This document shows, one piece after another, positions 14,406 through 54,850 of a DNA stretch of 64,000 bases. Location of the stretch: the NCBI RefSeq assembly GCF_017939745.1, contig NZ_JAGKQQ010000001.1, positions 3,224,001 to 3,288,000 of the forward strand, in the 5' to 3' direction. How positions within the stretch are numbered: the first letter of the stretch is position 1; every line of letters begins with the position of its first letter. A program made the position numbers and the translations under genes. The DNA comes from Gemmata palustris (GTDB taxonomy: Bacteria; Planctomycetota; Planctomycetia; Gemmatales; Gemmataceae). The notes below the pieces were generated by a model. That model saw only the letters and a list, made by a program, of their open reading frames with translations, made no database searches and was not told the DNA's origin.

Positions 14406-14568
14406 GCACAGGGCTCCCGCCCTGTGCTACGGACGCCGGCCCCTCCGGGGCGGAAAGACATTGAAGGTGTTGGTCTTCGTCTGAAGGAACCGCCCCCGAA
14501 GCGGTTGATGGCTCTGGTTTTCGCCCCGGAGGGGCCGACTAACGTAGCACAGGGCGGGAGCCCTGTGC
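14406..14568. repeat. Palindromic repeat type C, copy 2
   Basis: Same family as 12214-12453, here with 'CTCCCGCC' in place of 'CTTCCGCC': ACAGGGCTCCCGCCCTGTGC at one end and GCACAGGGCGGGAGCCCTGT at the other, around ACATTGAAGGTGTTGGTCTT. The rest of the 490-base gap (14118-14405 and 14569-14607) shows nothing that I can identify. Confidence 0.8.
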
Positions 14569-47638: not shown

Positions 47639-48394
47639 CTACGTCTTCCCGAGCACCAGGTCCACGACCCAGCACCCCCGCACGTGCGGCCCCGGTCCGC
47701 GGCAGTGGTCGAGGATGTCGGCACTGTCACACCCCGCGTCCTGGAGCGCGTCCGCCAGAATCGGCATCGCGCTGAAGTCCCGCGACTCATACATCTGAGA
47801 TGCGAGCGCCACAACAGTGGAGGTGCGCCACGACGGGGAGAACACAACGGGGCGGAACGGGTTCCCGAAAATGTCCCGAAAATGTGGGAGCGACTCGAAA
47901 GGTTCGGGGCAGTCTTCCCTTCCCATTAGTTCAGGGTACGAACGAACGAAGGGTATGAAATTAACCGCCGTGTGCACCGAGTACGCGGCCGACATGAGAA
48001 TTTCGCGCGGGGTTCGGTTCATGTAGGTCGCATCGTTCACCAATTCCTCAAGCTGCTCGCGCGGCATTTGCTCCAGTTGCTGAATGGCGCGGGCAACGTC
48101 GTGATCTTTAAAAGGCAAGGGAGGCGAGGAACCGCGCCCGTAATACTCGAATCTAAAGGCCGCCCCCTCGAGGTCGTAATCTAGTTGCTGAATGTCCTCT
48201 CTCGTCGCTTCGCCGTCCGCGAACCGCTCCAGCACGTCGATGCCGGCCAAACACTCCGGAAGGGGCAACAGAGCCGCAATTCTTCGGAGGTGTGCGACTT
48301 CGTACAAGTGGAGCTTCCGGTCCGATACGTTGGGGGCGATGAACCGAAGTAGCGCGTGAACGCTCGTTTCTTGCCGCCACTCGTGTTCGGTCAT
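47639..48394 (-). CDS. MTEAEW-family hypothetical protein, member 4
   Basis: The 251-residue protein starts MTEHEWRQETSVHALLRFIA with RKLHLYEVAHLRRIAALLPL and ends with the shared C-terminal block (DIFGNPFRPVVFSPSWRTST ... GPHVRGCWVVDLVLGKT). The middle contains QQLEQMPREQLEELVNDATY and is not seen in other members. It ends in KT where most end in KE. It lies next to a KNR4-type gene and member 5. Confidence 0.82.
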   Translation of the reverse strand: MTEHEWRQETSVHALLRFIAPNVSDRKLHLYEVAHLRRIAALLPLPECLAGIDVLERFADGEATREDIQQLDYDLEGAAFRFEYYGRGSSPPLPFKDHDVARAIQQLEQMPREQLEELVNDATYMNRTPREILMSAAYSVHTAVNFIPFVRSYPELMGREDCPEPFESLPHFRDIFGNPFRPVVFSPSWRTSTVVALASQMYESRDFSAMPILADALQDAGCDSADILDHCRGPGPHVRGCWVVDLVLGKT

Positions 48395-49422: not shown

Positions 49423-50100
49423 CTACGTCTTCCCGAGCACCAAGTCCACGACCCAGCACCCCCGCACGTGCGGCGCGCCCGCGGCGCGGCAGTGGCTCAG
49501 CACGTCGGCACTGTCGCATCCCGCGTCCTGGAGCGCGTCCGCCAGAATGGGCATCGCACTAAACTCGCGCGACTCGTACATCTGAGATGCGAGCGCCACT
49601 GCCGTGGACGTGCGCCATGACGGGGAGAACGCCACCGGGCGAAACGGGTTCCCGAAGATGTCACGGATGGCAATTGGAAGGAAGGTCCGAGGATTATCGC
49701 GAAGCGCACCGCGGTAAGGTGCGTTTGAATCGGTGAAGTATTCACCCAAGTTGGGGAAGGCGTACTCGTACCAGTCGGCCCAAAAATCGTAGGCGACGTG
49801 GATCGCGGCACCGCTGATACCTTGCTCGCGCCGATGATGAGCGTCGTACAGTGCCCGTGCCGGACCGCGGAACAATTCCCGAACGTGTGCCCCTCCGTCA
49901 GGCCGAGGCCGCTGCCCAGGGTGCTCCTCTAGCCACTCGAACGGTCGCCGCGCGTCCTCGTCTTCAATCAGAGACAATACTAGGCTCGCGCAAGCGACGC
50001 AGAAATGGTCCAGTCGGCGCGGGCTGCCCCACGGCAACTTTGCGACCTGAAAGTACATCTCTTCCGCATCCTCGCACGCGAGCCATTCCGCTTCGGTCAT
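49423..50100 (-). CDS. MTEAEW-family hypothetical protein, member 5
   Basis: The 225-residue protein begins MTEAEWLACEDAEEMYFQVA and ends with the common block (RDIFGNPFRPVAFSPSWRTS ... PHVRGCWVVDLVLGKT). The N-terminal RKLRLF motif is replaced by RRLDHFCVACASLVLSLIED. The middle (AAIHVAYDFWADWYEYAFPN) is unique. The start matches the end of a ribosome-like GAGG. The candidate structured RNA copy 1 begins about 80 bases upstream and is read in the opposite direction. Confidence 0.82.
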   Translation of the reverse strand: MTEAEWLACEDAEEMYFQVAKLPWGSPRRLDHFCVACASLVLSLIEDEDARRPFEWLEEHPGQRPRPDGGAHVRELFRGPARALYDAHHRREQGISGAAIHVAYDFWADWYEYAFPNLGEYFTDSNAPYRGALRDNPRTFLPIAIRDIFGNPFRPVAFSPSWRTSTAVALASQMYESREFSAMPILADALQDAGCDSADVLSHCRAAGAPHVRGCWVVDLVLGKT

Positions 50101-50182
50101 CAGTCGCCCCCTCCTGGAACCGCCCTCAGCATGACCGTTCCGGCGCCCGCCCACAAGTCCCGGCGCGCGCACGCCTTTCCTC

Positions 50183-50210
50183 TTGCACCCGGCACGCGCG
50201 CGGGTACTCT
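50183..50210 (+). promoter_or_regulatory. Promoter of structured element copy 1
   Basis: TTGCAC and TACTCT are separated by 16 bases. The same pair at the same spacing precedes copy 2, and TTGTAC-16-TATGGT precedes copy 3. Confidence 0.5.
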
Positions 50211-50221
50211 GTCACTTTCCC

Positions 50222-50264
50222 GACCGGCCCTGGCGGTGCATACGCTCCGCTGGGCGGGCCGGTC
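50222..50264. repeat. Hairpin module A (GACCGGCC ... GGCCGGTC)
   Basis: GACCGGCC (50222-50229) pairs with GGCCGGTC (50257-50264), with inner CTGGCGG/CCGCTGGG. A reverse-complement copy lies at 52006-52048, on the other side of element copy 2. Confidence 0.65.
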
Positions 50265-50271
50265 AAAGTTC

Positions 50272-50507
50272 TCGTGGTCGGTTTAGCTCGCTGCTCTGCA
50301 GCAGGACGATGTTGCGTCGTCCGAGCACACTCTGCCCCACTCGTCGCGGGGACCGCTGTTCCAGCACCGCTGTCGGTTGGGGCAACCCCTTTTAAAAGTC
50401 GGTCTGGGTCAACCTCGCCCGTCGCGGTTCCGCCTTTTAAAAGGGGTTGCCCCAACCGGCGTTGCCGTGAGCGTTCCGCGCCCCAGGAAGAGAAGTAGAC
50501 ACCACGA
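50272..50507 (+). ncRNA. Candidate structured RNA element, copy 1
   Basis: A closing stem (TCGTGGT 50272-50278 / ACCACGA 50501-50507) encloses a three-way junction (GCTC 50286-50289 / GAGC 50323-50326; GCTGC-TCT-GCAGC; GGACGA-TGTTGCG-TCGTCC). Then comes the conserved text GACCGCTGTTCCAGCACCGC, a 25-bp perfect hairpin (50374-50398 / 50434-50458) and the purine-rich CCAGGAAGAGAAGTAGAC. The stem GCTGC/GCAGC replaces GTCGC/GCGAC of copies 2 and 3, keeping the pairs. No reading frame of note is inside. Confidence 0.6.
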
Positions 50508-50512
50508 AAACG

Positions 50513-50548
50513 CGCCGCGAGCCGGGGATTGCTCCCCGGCTCGCGGCG
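50513..50548 (+). terminator. GC-rich hairpin after element copy 1
   Basis: A perfect 16-bp stem, CGCCGCGAGCCGGGGA and its complement, with a four-base loop, followed by TTTCGCA. Copy 2 has a different stem at the same place followed by the same TTTCGCA. The T run is short, so terminator function is likely but not certain. Confidence 0.5.
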
Positions 50549-50602
50549 TTTCGCACCCGCGCCGCACTCACGGGCGCGGAGCAATTGCGATCGAGGGCCG
50601 GC

Positions 50603-51052
50603 CTACTTTTTCTTCCGCTTGAGCGTGAACATCACGTACTCCGGCGCGTCCGCGGCGGTTTTGAACTTCGTCGGGCGGGCGTCCGCGCCCTCTTCGCTCA
50701 GGCACAGCACGAGCGTGTCCCCGTCCAACTTGTAGATGCCCACCTGCTTCTTGCCCTTTTGCTCGCCCTCGGTGATGTCGTAATCGACCGTCGGCACCTT
50801 GGCCTTGGGGTCGAGCGTGAACTTGCCCTTCTCCACGTTCTCGCCCAGCGTGAACGTGTACGTGTTCTTCTCGAACGCCATCGTCGGCTCCAGGGCCTTG
50901 ACCACTTCGGCGAGGTCCTGGCCGGTCTGTTCGAGCTTGACCACCTCCCAGGTGCCCTGGAACAGGTCGCTGTCGCTCTTCTTGTCGTCCGCCGTCAGAA
51001 CGGCGTGCCCGACGGGGCACAAGCAGAGAACGGTCGCAACGAGCGCGCGCAT
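50603..51052 (-). CDS. TIGR03067-domain secreted protein
   Basis: The 149-residue protein has a signal peptide (MRALVATVLCLCPVGHAVLT) and then the planctomycete TIGR03067 pattern: DSDLFQGTWEVVKLEQTGQD and DYDITEGEQKGKKQVGIYKL, with the typical end CLSEEGADARPTKF and VMFTLKRKKK. The domain is a small secreted beta-barrel of unknown function found in many copies in Gemmata and relatives. GGAGA lies upstream of the ATG. Confidence 0.88.
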   Translation of the reverse strand: MRALVATVLCLCPVGHAVLTADDKKSDSDLFQGTWEVVKLEQTGQDLAEVVKALEPTMAFEKNTYTFTLGENVEKGKFTLDPKAKVPTVDYDITEGEQKGKKQVGIYKLDGDTLVLCLSEEGADARPTKFKTAADAPEYVMFTLKRKKK

Positions 51053-51124
51053 GAGAAGCTCTCCTTTGGGTGAAGTACCGAACACCGAACCACCGGTCCG
51101 TGAGCGCGGCGCGGGCGCTCCGGG

Positions 51125-51571
51125 TCAGCGCGTGCGGACCCGTTTCCGCGGGCGCCCGTCGTCCCGCGACTCGCGCCACATCAGGAACATGAACGCGCCC
51201 GCGGCCCCGAGCGACCCGACGAAGATCGCGATCCACCCCCAGCGCACTTGGCCGAGCAAGCGCGAGCTGCCGTCCGCGCCCGGGGTGTAAACGATCTGCA
51301 GTTTCCCGTCGGCGGGCGCCACCCAGGACGGATCGGTCGTGAACATGGCTTTGCGCGGCGCGCCGCCCGGCTCGGACCAGGCGTACTCGACCGTCGTCTC
51401 GGTGCCGCCCCGGCGCGTGGACGACGGGTAGGCCTTCGTGACGGTCGCCGCGGTCTGTTTGCCGCTGATCTGGAAGGCCAGTTCGTCGTAACACATGAAG
51501 CACGAAATCAGGAACAGTGCGCCGCAAACCAGTATGCACTTGAACTTCCACGTCTCGTCCGCGTGATCCAT
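51125..51571 (-). CDS. Two-span membrane protein (DUF3592-like)
   Basis: The 148-residue protein has a hydrophobic segment near 10-30 (KCILVCGALFLISCFMCYDE), a beta-rich external part (ATVTKAYPSSTRRGGTETTV ... VYTPGADGSSRLLGQ) and a second segment near 110-132 (WIAIFVGSLGAAGAFMFLMW) followed by a basic tail. The layout fits DUF3592 proteins. GGAGG precedes the ATG. The element copy 2 lies about 150 bases upstream. Confidence 0.78.
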   Translation of the reverse strand: MDHADETWKFKCILVCGALFLISCFMCYDELAFQISGKQTAATVTKAYPSSTRRGGTETTVEYAWSEPGGAPRKAMFTTDPSWVAPADGKLQIVYTPGADGSSRLLGQVRWGWIAIFVGSLGAAGAFMFLMWRESRDDGRPRKRVRTR

Positions 51572-51722
51572 CGGGCCTCCGGGCGTTGAGGAGCGCAGTG
51601 TACCCGCGCCGCGCGTGTTCGTGCAAACGAATCTGTTCCATTCTTGTGCGTGCGCCCCTCGTCCGGTCCCGCGACGAGCGCTCCGGCCGAAGCCACCCGG
51701 CCGCGCGTGCCGACCCCGGCCC

Positions 51723-51750
51723 TTGCATCGAGCGCCGGTTCGGGTACTCT
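51723..51750 (+). promoter_or_regulatory. Promoter of structured element copy 2
   Basis: TTGCAT and TACTCT are separated by 16 bases, the same arrangement as before copy 1. Confidence 0.5.
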
Positions 51751-51758
51751 GTGTTCTG

Positions 51759-52001
51759 TTCCCGTGGTTGCGTTTAGCTCGTCGCTCTGCGACAGGACGA
51801 TGTTGCGTCGTCCGAGCACGTTCCACCACACCCCGCGCGGGGACCGCTGTTCCAGCACCGCTGTCGGGCAGATCTGCCGCAGGTGCGGCGCTGGCTGGAA
51901 CAACATCACCGGATGCCGTTCAGCGCCGCACCTGCGGCAGATCTGCCCGGCGGTGCCGCGAGCGTTCCGCGCTCCAGGAAGAGAAGTAGACCCCACGGGA
52001 A
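51759..52001 (+). ncRNA. Candidate structured RNA element, copy 2
   Basis: The closing stem TTCCCGTGG (51759-51767) pairs with CCACGGGAA (51993-52001). Inside are the three-way junction at 51777-51817 (stems GTCGC/GCGAC and GGACGA/TCGTCC), the conserved GACCGCTGTTCCAGCACCGC and a 29-bp perfect hairpin (51865-51893 / 51921-51949, loop 27 bases) unrelated in sequence to that of copy 1. The 3' text CCAGGAAGAGAAGTAGAC matches copy 1 exactly. Confidence 0.6.
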
Positions 52002-52005
52002 CATT

Positions 52006-52048
52006 GACCGGCCTGCCCAGCGGGGCGCAAGCACCGCCAGGGCCGGTC
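52006..52048. repeat. Hairpin module A, reverse-complement copy
   Basis: GACCGGCC (52006-52013) and GGCCGGTC (52041-52048) enclose GCCCAGCGGGGCGCAAGCAC. The block is the reverse complement of 50222-50264 with several changes. Confidence 0.65.
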
Positions 52049-52057
52049 GGGAAGCGG

Positions 52058-52085
52058 ACGGGCCGGGGAGCGATCCCCGGCCCGT
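52058..52085 (+). terminator. GC-rich hairpin after element copy 2
   Basis: ACGGGCCGGGGA and TCCCCGGCCCGT form a perfect 12-bp stem with a GCGA loop, followed by GTCGTTTCGCA. The position corresponds to the hairpin after copy 1 but the lower stem sequence differs. Confidence 0.5.
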
Positions 52086-52138
52086 GTCGTTTCGCAGTTC
52101 CAACGGATCGCCGGGCACCTTCTGCGCTCCCGAGCGCT

Positions 52139-52657
52139 TCAGGGCGAAAGAGCCTCCACTTCGCACTCGTGCGCGCACACCGTTCCGCCGAGGGTCCGGG
52201 TCAGAAATTCGACCAGGAACGCCGCTTCATCGCGGGCCTTTTGCCAGTCGCGCCACAAACGGAAGGTGCCCACAACGATCATGAACAAAAACACCGGCAG
52301 CATCCAACGGCTGATTCCGGAAGCAGTGCTGTTCGCGGCCACGATCAGCACAAACAGGTTGACCAATATAGACATCGCGTAGGTAGCCAGGGCCCACCAG
52401 GACGAGACGTCCCGCCCGACCCGGCCCCGGAACACGGTCACGCCCCCCAGCGCCTCGAACGTTCCCGAGAGGCACATCTGGAACGAGTTGCGGGATTCGA
52501 TCCGCTTCCACACGCGCACCCGCTCGGCCCCGACGTACCCGTACACCGCTTTGGGTTCGCTCTCGAAGAACTGCATGTAGCCCCGGTTCGTGGCCGCGGC
52601 CAGGCGCGCGGTACACTCGTCCGGAGATAGGGGGAACGTGAGTTCGATGCGGGCCAT
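52139..52657 (-). CDS. Small membrane protein with an N-terminal soluble domain
   Basis: The 172-residue protein has an N-terminal beta-rich part (MARIELTFPLSPDECTARLA ... VGAERVRVWKRIESRNSFQM) and two adjacent hydrophobic segments near 88-110 and 117-136 (YAMSILVNLFVLIVAANSTA and RWMLPVFLFMIVVGTFRLW). A charged helix follows. No family was recognised. It lies between element copy 2 and a type D repeat. Confidence 0.72.
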   Translation of the reverse strand: MARIELTFPLSPDECTARLAAATNRGYMQFFESEPKAVYGYVGAERVRVWKRIESRNSFQMCLSGTFEALGGVTVFRGRVGRDVSSWWALATYAMSILVNLFVLIVAANSTASGISRWMLPVFLFMIVVGTFRLWRDWQKARDEAAFLVEFLTRTLGGTVCAHECEVEALSP

Positions 52658-52698
52658 CGCTATGGGACCTCGTTGTGTGCGGCGGTATCAATCCAGCG

Positions 52699-52842
52699 TT
52701 CCCAGGGTGCGCGTTTCGCGACCCTGGGCTGAGGTGTGCAACCCCTTCGGGGTAGAAACCCAAACCACCGGGGTATTTACCCCGAAGGGGTTAGATTACC
52801 CAGCCCAGGGTCGACCGCAACGCGGCGCACCCTGGGAACCCC
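52699..52842. repeat. Inverted repeat type D, copy 4
   Basis: TTCCCAGGGTGCGCGTTTCG, CAACCCCTTCGGGGTAGAAA, TACCCCGAAGGGGTTAGATT and CAGCCCAGGGTCGACCGCAA with GCGCACCCTGGG. It lies between the membrane protein start and the stop of MTEAEW member 6. Confidence 0.85.
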
Positions 52843-52861
52843 GTGCGCGCACCCGGGCCAC

Positions 52862-53590
52862 CTACTCCTTCCCGAGCACGAGGTCCACGACCCAGCACCC
52901 GCGCACGTGCGGCGCGCCCGCGTCGCGGCAGTGACTCAGCACATCCTCGCTGTCACAGCCGGCGTCCTGAATCGCGTCGGCCAGAATCGGCATCGCGCCG
53001 AACTCGCGCGACTCGTACATCTGTGCCGCGAGCGCCACAACAGTGGACGTGCGCCACGCGGAGGAGATGACCACGGGGCGGAACGGCAACGGGCCGAAGA
53101 TATCTTGGAGGAAGCAGATGATGGAGCGCTCGGCGGCGTCCCTCTGACCGAGCAAATCGGTCGCGTTCAGTATTTCATAGGCGACGTAGCACGGGTACGA
53201 GTGCAGCTTCCTCGACCCGTGCCATTCCCGGTCGCGGTACGGGCTCCCCGCGGTGAGGATCGCGCACCCGGCGCGGTACTCTACTTCTTCGATGAGCGTC
53301 GGATGGCCCTCGCTCCTGAAAAGAACTTGGCGCCGTTCCTGCTCACGCGATTGAAGGGACTCGACATCACGGCTCACCCGGTCTTCGGCCTCGCTACCGT
53401 CTGCCAGCTCCTCGATCGAACAAAGCAAGGACGGGAACGGTGCCCCCGAAAACGGCGCCACAAGGCGGCAACACGCGACGCAAGCCAGCCGCAACTTGCG
53501 CCCAGAAGCCCCGGCGCAGAACAGCTCGTTGAAGAGGCGGTGCGGCCAGTTGTAAGGTCCGGTGGCCGTCAGCCATTCCGCTTCGGTCAT
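52862..53590 (-). CDS. MTEAEW-family hypothetical protein, member 6
   Basis: The 242-residue protein begins MTEAEWLTATGPYNWPHRLF and has RKLRLACVACCRLVAPFSGA. It ends with the common block (QDIFGPLPFRPVVISSAWRT ... PHVRGCWVVDLVLGKE), here with 'PLPF' as in member 3. The middle is long and charged (EAEDRVSRDVESLQSREQER). It is read away from element copy 3, whose promoter lies about 100 bases upstream on the opposite strand. Confidence 0.82.
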   Translation of the reverse strand: MTEAEWLTATGPYNWPHRLFNELFCAGASGRKLRLACVACCRLVAPFSGAPFPSLLCSIEELADGSEAEDRVSRDVESLQSREQERRQVLFRSEGHPTLIEEVEYRAGCAILTAGSPYRDREWHGSRKLHSYPCYVAYEILNATDLLGQRDAAERSIICFLQDIFGPLPFRPVVISSAWRTSTVVALAAQMYESREFGAMPILADAIQDAGCDSEDVLSHCRDAGAPHVRGCWVVDLVLGKE

Positions 53591-53687
53591 CGGTCGCTCC
53601 CGCGGGGCGCGTCGGCACGATGATACCAGCGCGCCCGGGGAGAAAATAACGGAACGCGCGGGACCGGGGAGCGGCAACCGGCTCCGC

Positions 53688-53715
53688 TTGTACCAACTGT
53701 GGGTTCGGGTATGGT
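53688..53715 (+). promoter_or_regulatory. Promoter of structured element copy 3 and the LRR gene
   Basis: TTGTAC and TATGGT are separated by 16 bases, in line with the promoters of copies 1 and 2. The LRR gene starts about 100 bases downstream. Confidence 0.5.
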
Positions 53716-53719
53716 GTGT

Positions 53720-53779
53720 TCCCGTGGTCGTGTTTAGCTCGTCGCCCTGCGACAGGACGATGGCGGTGTCGTCCGAGCA
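53720..53779 (+). ncRNA. Structured element copy 3, partial, in the LRR gene leader
   Basis: TTCCCGTGG and the three-way junction are present: GCTC/GAGC (53737-53740 / 53775-53778), GTCGC-CCT-GCGAC and GGACGA-TGGCGGTG-TCGTCC, with loops that differ from the other copies. The long hairpin and the 3' closing arm are missing. It forms most of the probable leader of the LRR gene. Confidence 0.5.
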
Positions 53780-53818
53780 CATCCCTCGCACGGCGCCCGT
53801 TCGCAACCAGGAGCCCCG

Positions 53819-54850
53819 ATGTTCCGGATCTCGGCCCTTGTCCTGATTACTTTGCTGTGCCTCGGTTCCCCCGTCCGTGCCGACGATGCCGAAGATAAAG
53901 CCGTCGCGTTCTTCGAGGGGCTCGGTGGGAGGGCGTCCCGCGACGAGAACGCGCCCGGTAAACCGGTCACCGATCTCAGCCTGAATCATTTGCCGCTAAC
54001 GGACTTAGAACTTAAGGAAATCGCCGCACTCCGGAACCTCAGAACGCTCGACCTGTCCGATACGAAAGTGACGGACGCGGGACTCAAGCAACTGAAGGGC
54101 CTCAAGAATCTCAAAACGTTGCACCTGTCCGACACGAAGGTAACGGGCACGGGATTCAAAGAACTCGTTGCGCTCCAGAAACTCAAGGAACTCTATCTGG
54201 GTCTCACAACAGTATCGGACGCGGGGCTCAAGGAAATCGCGGCGCTCAAAAAGCTCACCTTCCTCCAGCTATTCTGTGAAAAAGTAACAGACGCTGGAAT
54301 TAAAGAGCTCGCCGCGCTCGAGAACCTGACCGCCCTATACCTGCTCGGCACGGGAGCAACGGACACGGTGCTCAAGGAACTCACCGCACTCAAAAAGCTC
54401 ACCACGCTACATCTGAGCGGCACGAAGGTAACGGACGCGGGCCTGAAGGAACTCGCCGTGCTCCAGAACCTCACCGCGCTCGGCCTGTCCAGCACGCAGG
54501 TGACGGACGCGGGGCTCAAAGAACTGATCGCACTCAAAAGCCTCGAGTGCCTCTATCTGCACAGCACGCGGATAACGGACGCGGGACTCAAGGAACTCGC
54601 CGTGCTCCAGAACCTCACCGCGCTCGACCTGGGCCGCACCAAAGTGACGGACACGGGGTTCAAGGAACTCGCCGCGCTTCAGAAACTCACGTGGCTCTAC
54701 CTGAGTGGCGCGCAAATAACGGACGCGGGACTCAAAGGGCTTGCCGCACTCAAAAACCTCACCGCGCTCGGCGTGGGTTATACAAAAGTAACGGACATGG
54801 GGATCAAGGAACTCCAGTCGGCATTGCCCGAGTGCAAAATCTTAAGGTGA
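53819..54850 (+). CDS. Secreted leucine-rich repeat protein
   Basis: The 343-residue protein has a signal peptide (MFRISALVLITLLCLGSPVR, cut at ADD) and then about eleven LRRs of 24 residues (KVTDAGLKELAALKNLTALYL pattern with changes), ending with LQSALPECKILR, a known planctomycete LRR ending. The repeats form a binding surface, with no catalytic part. It is probably exported. Its promoter and leader carry structured element copy 3. The repeat DNA is less uniform than in the ROCO gene. Confidence 0.88.
   Translation: MFRISALVLITLLCLGSPVRADDAEDKAVAFFEGLGGRASRDENAPGKPVTDLSLNHLPLTDLELKEIAALRNLRTLDLSDTKVTDAGLKQLKGLKNLKTLHLSDTKVTGTGFKELVALQKLKELYLGLTTVSDAGLKEIAALKKLTFLQLFCEKVTDAGIKELAALENLTALYLLGTGATDTVLKELTALKKLTTLHLSGTKVTDAGLKELAVLQNLTALGLSSTQVTDAGLKELIALKSLECLYLHSTRITDAGLKELAVLQNLTALDLGRTKVTDTGFKELAALQKLTWLYLSGAQITDAGLKGLAALKNLTALGVGYTKVTDMGIKELQSALPECKILR

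What the first reader, a model, noticed from the sequence alone, without database searches (positions are those of the whole stretch)
50272..53779. Undescribed structured element in three copies, with compensatory base changes
Seen directly: copies at 50272-50507, 51759-52001 and 53720-53779 share a three-way junction. Stem 1 is GCTGC/GCAGC in copy 1 and GTCGC/GCGAC in copies 2 and 3, so two base pairs changed on both sides and pairing is kept. Stem 2 (GGACGA/TCGTCC) and the outer stem (GCTC/GAGC) are constant, while loop lengths vary. Each copy is preceded by a -35/-10-like pair with a 16-base spacer. Double compensatory change is the classic sign of selection on RNA (or single-stranded DNA) structure. 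I know no published family with this shape.
Basis: seen in the sequence. Interest (0 to 1): 0.82.

Follow-up and report, generated by a model that had tools for sequence, protein, structure and literature searches.

The report
Scattered retron RNAs with swappable hairpins
The window holds two complete copies and one broken copy of the template RNA of a bacterial defence element (a type XIII retron), members of a family scattered through this genome far from the enzyme that should copy them into DNA, and each complete copy carries its own perfectly or almost perfectly paired hairpin, a part that appears to be exchanged between copies like a cassette.

Summary
The window holds two complete and one broken copy of an RNA gene family with 27 hits in this genome and 7-36 in 17 of 19 genomes of its genus (Gemmata). 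Intact copies have an outer stem, TAGC, a three-way junction and one long hairpin: the plan of a retron template RNA (msr-msd). In 29 of 31 genomes with a strong HEAT-ARM_XIII gene a copy lies just upstream of it; here an RT_XIII gene ends that gene row. So this is the template RNA of a type XIII retron, and the window copies are RT-less copies 2.1 Mb away.
The surprise is the hairpin: near-fixed length, an arm that differs between copies, perfect pairing in 60 of 73 copies (3 G-U in 2,117 pairs), many perfect palindromes. In 7 of 14 syntenic pairs between species the arm is different while the rest is conserved, and identical arms sit at different loci. In one genome the copy at the operon has lost its hairpin while others are intact. 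Inferred, not shown: one RT copies all of them in trans into a pool of msDNAs, perhaps phage sensors.

The parts
50183..50210 (+). copy 1 promoter-like pair: -35 TTGCAC, 16 bases, -10 TACTCT
   Evidence: sequence; family-wide motif
50222..50264 (.). palindromic repeat between promoter and RNA of copy 1 (not part of the retron RNA; the same repeat, inverted, lies at 52006-52048)
50268..50278 (+). copy 1 a1, 5' side of outer stem (GTTCTCGTGGT)
50283..50344 (+). copy 1 msr: TTAGC (candidate priming G at 50286) and three-way junction with two stem-loops; msr/msd border inferred
50345..50494 (+). copy 1 msd (predicted reverse-transcribed part; ends inferred)
50374..50402 (+). copy 1 variable arm, left strand (29 nt)
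50430..50458 (+). copy 1 variable arm, right strand (29 nt)
50501..50511 (+). copy 1 a2, 3' side of outer stem (ACCACGAAAAC)
50513..50552 (+). copy 1 terminator-like GC hairpin followed by TTTC
   Evidence: sequence
51723..51750 (+). copy 2 promoter-like pair: TTGCAT, 16 bases, TACTCT
   Evidence: sequence
51759..51769 (+). copy 2 a1 (GTTCCCGTGGT)
51774..51835 (+). copy 2 msr: TTAGC and three-way junction; border inferred
51836..51985 (+). copy 2 msd (predicted; ends inferred)
51865..51893 (+). copy 2 variable arm, left strand
51921..51949 (+). copy 2 variable arm, right strand
51992..52002 (+). copy 2 a2 (CCCACGGGAAC)
52058..52093 (+). copy 2 terminator-like GC hairpin followed by TTTC
   Evidence: sequence
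53688..53715 (+). copy 3 promoter-like pair: TTGTAC, 16 bases, TATGGT
   Evidence: sequence
53718..53790 (+). copy 3: truncated copy, a1 and three-way junction only, no msd, in front of the LRR gene at 53819

Best explanation
The elements are msr-msd genes of a type XIII retron. Shown by sequence: a family of about 240-nt RNA genes with outer stem a1/a2, TAGC after a1, a three-way-junction msr, and one long msd hairpin. One member stands in front of the HEAT-ARM_XIII gene of a type XIII retron gene row, and the others, including the window copies, are dispersed. The msd arm has near-fixed length, is locus-specific, almost always perfectly Watson-Crick paired and palindrome-rich, and it changes as a block: the msd, not the msr or the outer stem, is exchanged between copies. 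Inferred: the RT_XIII of that locus reverse transcribes all copies in trans from the G of TAGC. The cell would then hold a pool of msDNAs with a common RNA-DNA handle and many different DNA duplex arms, held by the HEAT-ARM/SWIM/RT proteins as sensors or decoys whose disturbance by a phage releases the defence. Arms turn over by ectopic gene conversion between copies, possibly by msDNA recombining back into other copies.
For: Position: an R1 hit lies 67-280 nt upstream of a strong HEAT-ARM_XIII match, same strand, in 29 of 31 genomes that have the gene; in the two exceptions the gene starts 208 and 55 nt from a contig end. Own gene row: ncRNA, HEAT-ARM_XIII 1101 aa (E=0), HEAT-ARM_XIII 2302 aa (E=0), SWIM_XIII (1.2e-187), RT_XIII (4.1e-159). 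Co-occurrence: within the genus both in 17 of 19 genomes, neither in 2; of 76 other family genomes the gene is strong in 13, the RNA found in 13, both in 12. Retron anatomy: TAGC in 89 of 92 copies; a1/a2 duplex mean -24.6 kcal against -16.7 with partners swapped. Covariation. Near-fixed length: 92 of 104 distinct copies 215-221 nt, 73 exactly 218. Arm: 60 of 73 perfect over 29 bp, G-U 3 of 2,117. Exchange. Use of dispersed copies: in G004 the copy in front of HEAT-ARM_XIII has lost the whole hairpin, while two dispersed copies looked at there (L045, L109) are full-length 218-nt copies and HEAT-ARM_XIII and RT_XIII remain.
Against: No transcript, msDNA or phage phenotype has been seen; reverse transcription in trans is inferred. 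No convincing R1 hit lies in the 49 loci fetched around RT genes (best 15.3 bits, E 0.24), because the operon copy is about 13 kb from its RT. G069 has an R1 hit without a strong HEAT-ARM_XIII match; G051 has the gene without the RNA. The promoter motif is found in 48 of 92 copies, and 57 of 92 a1/a2 pairs beat the 5% level of shuffles. Twelve of 104 copies are of abnormal length or lack the 3' module. In 7 of 14 syntenic pairs the arm is conserved rather than exchanged.
Confidence: 0.8

Rival explanations
1. Retrotransposed or duplicated debris: the dispersed copies are inactive duplicates of the retron template, as suggested for the msDNA-like repeats of Nannocystis, and have no function of their own.
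For: RT-less msr/msd repeats are described for Retron-Nex1 (PMC6868368, passages read). The window's copy 3 is truncated; 12 of 104 copies are of abnormal length or lack the 3' module.
Against: 92 of 104 copies keep 215-221 nt and both modules. Pairing is kept through many double changes. Promoter motif in 48 of 92 against 2 of 92 shuffled. In G004 it is the operon copy that has decayed, not the two dispersed copies looked at.
Confidence: 0.1
2. Dispersed palindromic (REP or MITE-like) DNA repeats moved by a transposase; RNA structure is incidental.
For: Multi-copy, palindromic; another palindromic repeat lies beside two of the window copies. The scarcity of G-U pairs points to DNA.
Against: Copies differ by about 20% in the 5' module yet keep pairing, about half have a placed promoter motif, and one copy has a conserved position beside a retron gene row. 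A transposed repeat would not have a new perfectly paired arm at each site.
Confidence: 0.04
3. The structured RNA itself is the product (a hypervariable double-stranded RNA or small regulatory RNA family), not its DNA copy.
For: Promoter-like pairs and terminator-like hairpins at both complete window copies; strong RNA folding.
Against: Only 3 G-U in 2,117 arm pairs. None of 15 own arms matches elsewhere in the own genome at E<0.01, with 40 of 134 first-look candidates scored, so no antisense target is seen. Zero-loop palindromes, which suit duplex DNA, are the most enriched (39 against 5.7 expected). Linkage to a retron RT.
Confidence: 0.08
4. The arms are kept perfectly paired by hairpin-templated copying of one arm from the other, not by selection, and the palindromes are by-products of the same process.
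For: Perfect pairing almost without G-U intermediates; both arms differ together as a block.
Against: Identical arms kept at syntenic loci in two or three species, and identical arms at different loci in different species, point to inheritance and exchange of existing arms; near-fixed length argues for constraint.
Confidence: 0.2

Closest known systems
Type XIII retrons (PADLOC models RT_XIII, HEAT-ARM_XIII, SWIM_XIII, WGR_XIII)
   Same: One copy of the family lies in such a gene row, in front of HEAT-ARM_XIII.
   Different: Here the same genome has 26 further model hits elsewhere, and complete copies have different msd arms. I could not read the paper that defined the type (10.1093/nar/gkaa1149 is not held), so what it says about the type XIII RNA is unknown to me.
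Retron-Nex1 (Ne160) of Nannocystis exedens, with msDNA-like chromosomal repeats
   Same: Repeated msr/msd sequences without a nearby RT (PMC6868368, passages read).
   Different: There described as apparently duplicated repeats; from the review passage I cannot tell whether they differ in the msd. Here most copies are complete, with different perfectly paired msd arms and signs of cassette exchange.
Experimentally validated retron ncRNAs (Eco1 and others)
   Same: a1/a2 stem of 8-30 nt, TAGC with priming G, msr of 1-3 hairpins, one long msd hairpin (features as given in PMC6868368, passages).
   Different: [quoted passage not shown] here 60 of 73 copies are perfect over 29 bp.
CRISPR arrays and other systems with a repertoire of variable cassettes (comparison recalled, from no call)
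   Same: A constant frame with a variable insert of near-fixed length and turnover between strains.
   Different: No CRISPR-like array and no acquisition genes were looked for; no match of 15 own arms to 50,697 phage records better than E 2; the insert is a palindrome-rich duplex, not a single-strand guide.

Membership tests
retron template RNA (msr-msd) | inverted repeats a1/a2 closing the RNA | tested here: met
   92 copies: mean duplex energy -24.6 kcal, swapped partners -16.7, shuffled -15.2; 57 of 92 individually below the 5% level of shuffles
retron template RNA (msr-msd) | priming guanosine in (T)AGC just after a1 | tested here: met
   TAGC in 26 of 26 aligned copies and 89 of 92 (one each TAGT, AAGC, CAGC); TAGC named as the commonest form in PMC6868368. 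In more distant relatives some copies read AAGC or CAGC or lack it in that register
retron template RNA (msr-msd) | msr with 1-3 short stem-loops, msd one long hairpin | tested here: met
retron template RNA (msr-msd) | retron RT encoded with it | tested here: met
   met for the own operon copy (RT_XIII about 13 kb downstream on the same strand); not met for the window copies, which lie 2.1 Mb away
retron template RNA (msr-msd) | 2'-5' branched msDNA is made | not testable with these tools
   needs nucleic acid from cells
type XIII retron | RT_XIII with the HEAT-ARM_XIII and SWIM_XIII (or WGR_XIII) proteins of PADLOC | tested here: met
   own gene row: HEAT-ARM_XIII E=0 twice, SWIM_XIII 1.2e-187, RT_XIII 4.1e-159
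type XIII retron | the RNA occurs with this gene set and stands beside it | tested here: met
   95 family genomes: strong HEAT-ARM_XIII 30, RNA 30, both 29; exceptions G051 and G069. Upstream position in 29 of 31 genomes with the gene
Rfam family (any of 4,227) | score above gathering threshold at the element | tested here: not met
   only matches below the gathering scores at the element
REP/MITE mobile palindromes | transposase-linked ends, target-site duplications | not tested
   not looked for; copies keep compensatory pairing

The most novel reading that the evidence does not exclude
A retron with a diversified, recombining repertoire of sensors: one RT and one effector complex are served in trans by dozens of template RNAs, each giving an msDNA with a different palindrome-bearing DNA duplex, so that one defence system can be triggered by many different phage DNA-binding, cutting or methylating proteins; the arms are shuffled between loci as msd cassettes, perhaps through the msDNA itself.
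Probability: 0.35. Interest if true: 0.93.

Novelty: new variant of a known kind. Interest (0 to 1): 0.82.

Why it matters
Retrons are usually described as one RT, one template RNA and one effector. A genome that keeps more than fifteen intact, dispersed template RNAs for what looks like one retron, each with its own DNA arm, would be a different design: a constant detector with a variable sensing part. It makes an open question directly testable, namely what the DNA part of a retron senses, because nature offers a set of variants that differ mainly there. It would also give a source of trans-acting retron templates with perfect long hairpins for genome-editing tools. Even if the repertoire idea is wrong, the family is a large, strongly covarying RNA family for which Rfam has no model that matches.

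Tried and rejected
Undescribed riboswitch or regulatory RNA: dropped when the two single-copy genomes first found (G044, G053) both had the RNA directly in front of HEAT-ARM_XIII and the own genome proved to have the same locus.

RNA beside the RT gene: I first expected the template next to an RT. BLAST and the model over the RT loci found no convincing copy (best E 0.0006; best E 0.24). The operon copy is about 13 kb away, at the other end of the gene row.

Cargo reading: two own loci show the 5' and 3' modules 1 kb or more apart with open frames between (L026, L033). I first took the hairpin for a cargo site; with 92 of 104 copies at 215-221 nt these are exceptions (insertions or two broken copies).

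Arms as guides or as copies of other DNA: 15 own arms (all own copies of exactly 218 nt; the own genome has 27 model hits), joined into one query, match only their own elements at E<0.01 in the own genome, with 40 of 134 first-look candidates scored, and nothing better than E 2 in 50,697 phage records. The whole of copy 2 has no match in phages or plasmids at E 0.01.

Phage-borne copies: of 78 pattern-scan loci of viral contigs two score as the RNA (L334 108.6 bits, L333 89 bits) and 11 more reach only 18-22 bits. L334:1100-1700 is 100% identical to the chromosome of G010, so it is no evidence for phage carriage; L333 was not resolved.

Association with a neighbouring gene family (window 49423-50172 and 52862-53590): a member lies within about 1.5 kb of 9 of 27 own copies tested, but many matches to that part of the query suggest that the family is numerous, so no link is claimed.

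I searched 97 of its 118 loci with R1, leaving out 21 (records of Gemmata sp. IIL30, isolate CJuql4 and three MAGs); 41 of the 97 matched at E<=0.1, 56 did not, among them the five Paraburkholderia loci.

Rows dropped before counts: the arm statistics use only copies of exactly 218 nt (73 of 104; 87 of 121); palindrome statistics use one arm per cluster (56 of 73; 68 of 87). One of the 73 copies (L022) is out of register with 24 of 29 positions not Watson-Crick; it is kept in the counts. Without it the arm pairs are 2,072 Watson-Crick, 15 mismatched and 1 G-U of 2,088.


Full report
What is in the window. Two complete copies (RNA about 50268-50511 and 51759-52002, plus strand) and one truncated copy (53718-53790) of one element. 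Both complete copies fold far better than shuffled sequence (z -6.1 and -10.2). Rfam has no family that reaches its threshold there.

How many. BLAST with copy 1 gives 39 matching pieces in the own genome. A covariance model of the 5' module (R1, 101 positions, built from 26 copies) finds 27 in the own genome and 7-36 in each of 17 of 19 genomes of the genus, the own included; two small genomes, G012 and G017, have none. Contig lengths identify one congener (G010) as Gemmata sp. IIL30. In 95 genomes of the family 30 have the RNA, in 9 of 39 genera, with up to six copies outside the genus. Some of these lie in tandem (two copies in L407 and two in L411).

Architecture. In 104 distinct copies found in the loci fetched by then, 92 measure 215-221 nt from TTAGC to GTAGAC and 73 exactly 218; the other 12 are of other length or lack the 3' module. 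On the alignment of 26 copies I wrote a structure of 67 pairs: a four-pair closing stem, the two stem-loops, the stem GGRNNGCT/AGCNNYCC, CACCGC/GCGGTG, a 29-pair arm, and an apical stem. 97.0% of 1,740 cells pair; 44 pairs show a change on both sides; 407 cells are doubly changed against 114.8 +/- 8.7 in 500 shuffles, none of which reached it. One of the five measures (further pair types) does not differ from shuffles, and the shuffles do not keep relatedness; sliding the partners by 1-3 columns, which does, drops pairing to 33-45%. Outside this lies an outer stem whose sequence also differs between copies: mean duplex energy -24.6 kcal in 92 copies, -16.7 with partners swapped, -15.2 shuffled; 57 of 92 individually beat the 5% level of shuffles. 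A TTGnnn-N15-19-TAnnnT pair is found in 48 of 92 upstream stretches against 2 of 92 shuffled; 45 of the 48 motif sites end 19-24 nt before TTAGC.

What it is. The anatomy is that of a retron template RNA: outer stem, TAGC at its inner end (89 of 92 copies), short msr stem-loops, one long msd hairpin (features as given in the review PMC6868368, passages read). The strongest evidence is position. In the two single-copy genomes first found, one of them from another family of the class, the RNA stands directly in front of a gene that matches PADLOC HEAT-ARM_XIII at E 6.9e-176 and 8.2e-170. In this genome one copy (C1:1137861-1138080, minus strand) stands in front of four genes in a row on the same strand: HEAT-ARM_XIII (1101 aa, E=0), a second HEAT-ARM_XIII (2302 aa, E=0), SWIM_XIII (621 aa, 1.2e-187) and RT_XIII (442 aa, 4.1e-159). 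I then looked at all 31 genomes with a HEAT-ARM_XIII (PDLC02921) match above 580 bits, 30 in the family and G053: in 29 an R1 hit lies upstream on the same strand, 67 to 280 nt from the profile match. In the two exceptions, G051 and G077, the gene begins 208 and 55 nt from a contig end.

Co-occurrence. Within the genus 17 of 19 genomes have both gene and RNA and 2 of 19 neither. Of the other 76 genomes of the family 13 have the gene, 13 have the RNA, 12 have both; the exceptions are G051 (gene only) and G069 (RNA only). Two genomes with a good RT_XIII match but only a weak match to this HEAT-ARM model, G022 and G042, have no RNA.

The window copies are orphans. They lie 2.1 Mb from the RT_XIII of the gene row. 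The own genome has three further RTs whose best PADLOC models are retron RTs (C1:660576, C1:2959192, C1:4600640), none in the window. Nothing here shows that the dispersed copies are reverse transcribed; that one RT serves them in trans is inference from intact genes and co-occurrence. One natural experiment speaks for it: in G004 the copy in front of HEAT-ARM_XIII has lost its whole hairpin, while HEAT-ARM_XIII and RT_XIII are there, the genome has 13 R1 hits, and the two dispersed copies that I looked at are full-length 218-nt copies (L045, L109).

The variable arm. In the 73 copies of 218 nt the arm is Watson-Crick paired in 98.1% of 2,117 pairs, G-U in 0.14% (3 pairs), and perfect in 60 of 73 copies; arms of different copies are 30% identical on average while the 5' module is 80% identical. 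One copy is out of register; without it 2,072 of 2,088 pairs are Watson-Crick and one is G-U. The scarcity of G-U pairs suggests that pairing matters, or is made, in DNA. Arms contain an excess of internal inverted repeats: 13.1 of 24 bases against 6.3 +/- 0.6 in column shuffles, 7.7 +/- 0.6 in shuffles of each arm, and 6.2 in random 24-mers of the own loci (56 distinct arms). The strongest excess is in perfect palindromes without loop (39 against 5.7 expected); 35 of 68 distinct arms hold a perfect palindrome of at least 8 bp against 6.3 expected. Fifteen own arms occur nowhere else in the own genome at E<0.01, with 40 of 134 first-look candidates scored.

Cassette exchange. I compared own, G008 and G010 copies by their flanks. 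Fourteen pairs have at least 600 bits on both flanks. Seven keep the arm (0.97 or more; three of these seven are one locus in three species). In six it is different (0.55 or less) although the 5' module is 0.85-0.98 identical; the fourteenth (L149/L168, of unequal length, read by eye) also has a different arm. In two of the six (L130/L167, L015/L145) the flank match may come from a repeated neighbour family. Conversely, identical arms sit at loci without matching flanks: L021 (own) and L138 (G008) are 0.68 identical in the msr and 0.73 in the 3' tail, but 1.00 in the arms and 0.98 in the sequences next to them; L009 (second copy) and L159 are 0.74 in the msr, 0.91 in the tail, 1.00 and 0.98. 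The segment shared is about the part expected to be reverse transcribed. At the operon itself, own and G008 copies have nearly the same a1/a2 and differ by compensated changes in the second stem, yet have different arms; G018 and G011 likewise have different arms with nearly the same a1/a2. This supports exchange of msd cassettes between copies. Whether msDNA takes part, or ordinary gene conversion, is open.

How it most likely works. Shown: a family of mostly intact template genes, tied to one retron type, with locus-specific duplex arms that are swapped as blocks. Inferred: the RT of the gene row makes a mixed pool of msDNAs; the HEAT-ARM, SWIM and RT proteins hold them; a phage factor that binds, cuts or modifies one of the arms releases the effector. 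Palindromic arms would suit enzymes and repressors that act as dimers on DNA, but no trigger is known here.

Known and new. Type XIII retrons are known (PADLOC models), and RT-less msr/msd repeats are on record for Retron-Nex1 of Nannocystis (PMC6868368, passages read). The listings that I saw of ten paper searches showed no paper on retrons in Gemmata, on dispersed msr-msd copies as a repertoire, or on the type XIII RNA; several listings were cut, and I looked for passages in only three papers (PMC12548924; PMC6868368; PMC8867640). The founding classification paper is not held, so priority is not settled. I rate it a new variant of a known kind.

Noticed in passing
window 50222-50264 and 52006-52048: A 43-bp palindromic repeat (GACCGGCC...GGCCGGTC) beside two of the retron RNAs, in opposite orientation; also seen beside other copies, three times in tandem near C1:4236329-4236490.
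   Followed up: partly
window 53718-53850: A truncated msr with a promoter-like pair now leads directly into a leucine-rich-repeat gene (53819-54850): a possible case of a retron RNA remnant turned into a 5' leader.
   Followed up: no
window 49423-50172, 52862-53590, 47639-48394: Members of a gene family (MTEAEWL near the start, DLVLGK at the end in the first two) without a Pfam match for the two tested; members lie within about 1.5 kb of 9 of 27 own copies tested.
   Followed up: partly
L026 4000-6050, L033 2980-4200: Two own loci where the 5' and 3' modules are 1-1.9 kb apart with open reading frames between; one frame (435 aa) has no Pfam match.
   Followed up: partly
L418 796-912 (G004): Operon copy of the RNA that has lost its hairpin, in front of an intact-looking HEAT-ARM_XIII gene.
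   Followed up: partly
L408 1500, L410 103: Copies in other genera whose arm is reduced to a 14-bp palindrome (L408) or missing (L410): natural minimal-arm variants.
   Followed up: no
L308 12975-16583: The HEAT-ARM_XIII protein contains a stretch that looks like a BRCT domain to the eye (recalled pattern; no such Pfam match).
   Followed up: no
L078, L079, L080: Three further retron-type RTs in the own genome (best models RT_XIII, RT_XIII, RT_other), one with a weak HEAT match; no template RNA found near them with R1.
   Followed up: partly
window 14522-14567: Acido-Lenti-1 RNA above the Rfam gathering score on the minus strand.
   Followed up: no
L333 3153-3252: A copy of the RNA in a contig classed as viral, about 160 nt from a 736-aa gene that looks like a large terminase to the eye; not resolved whether it is a prophage.
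   Followed up: no
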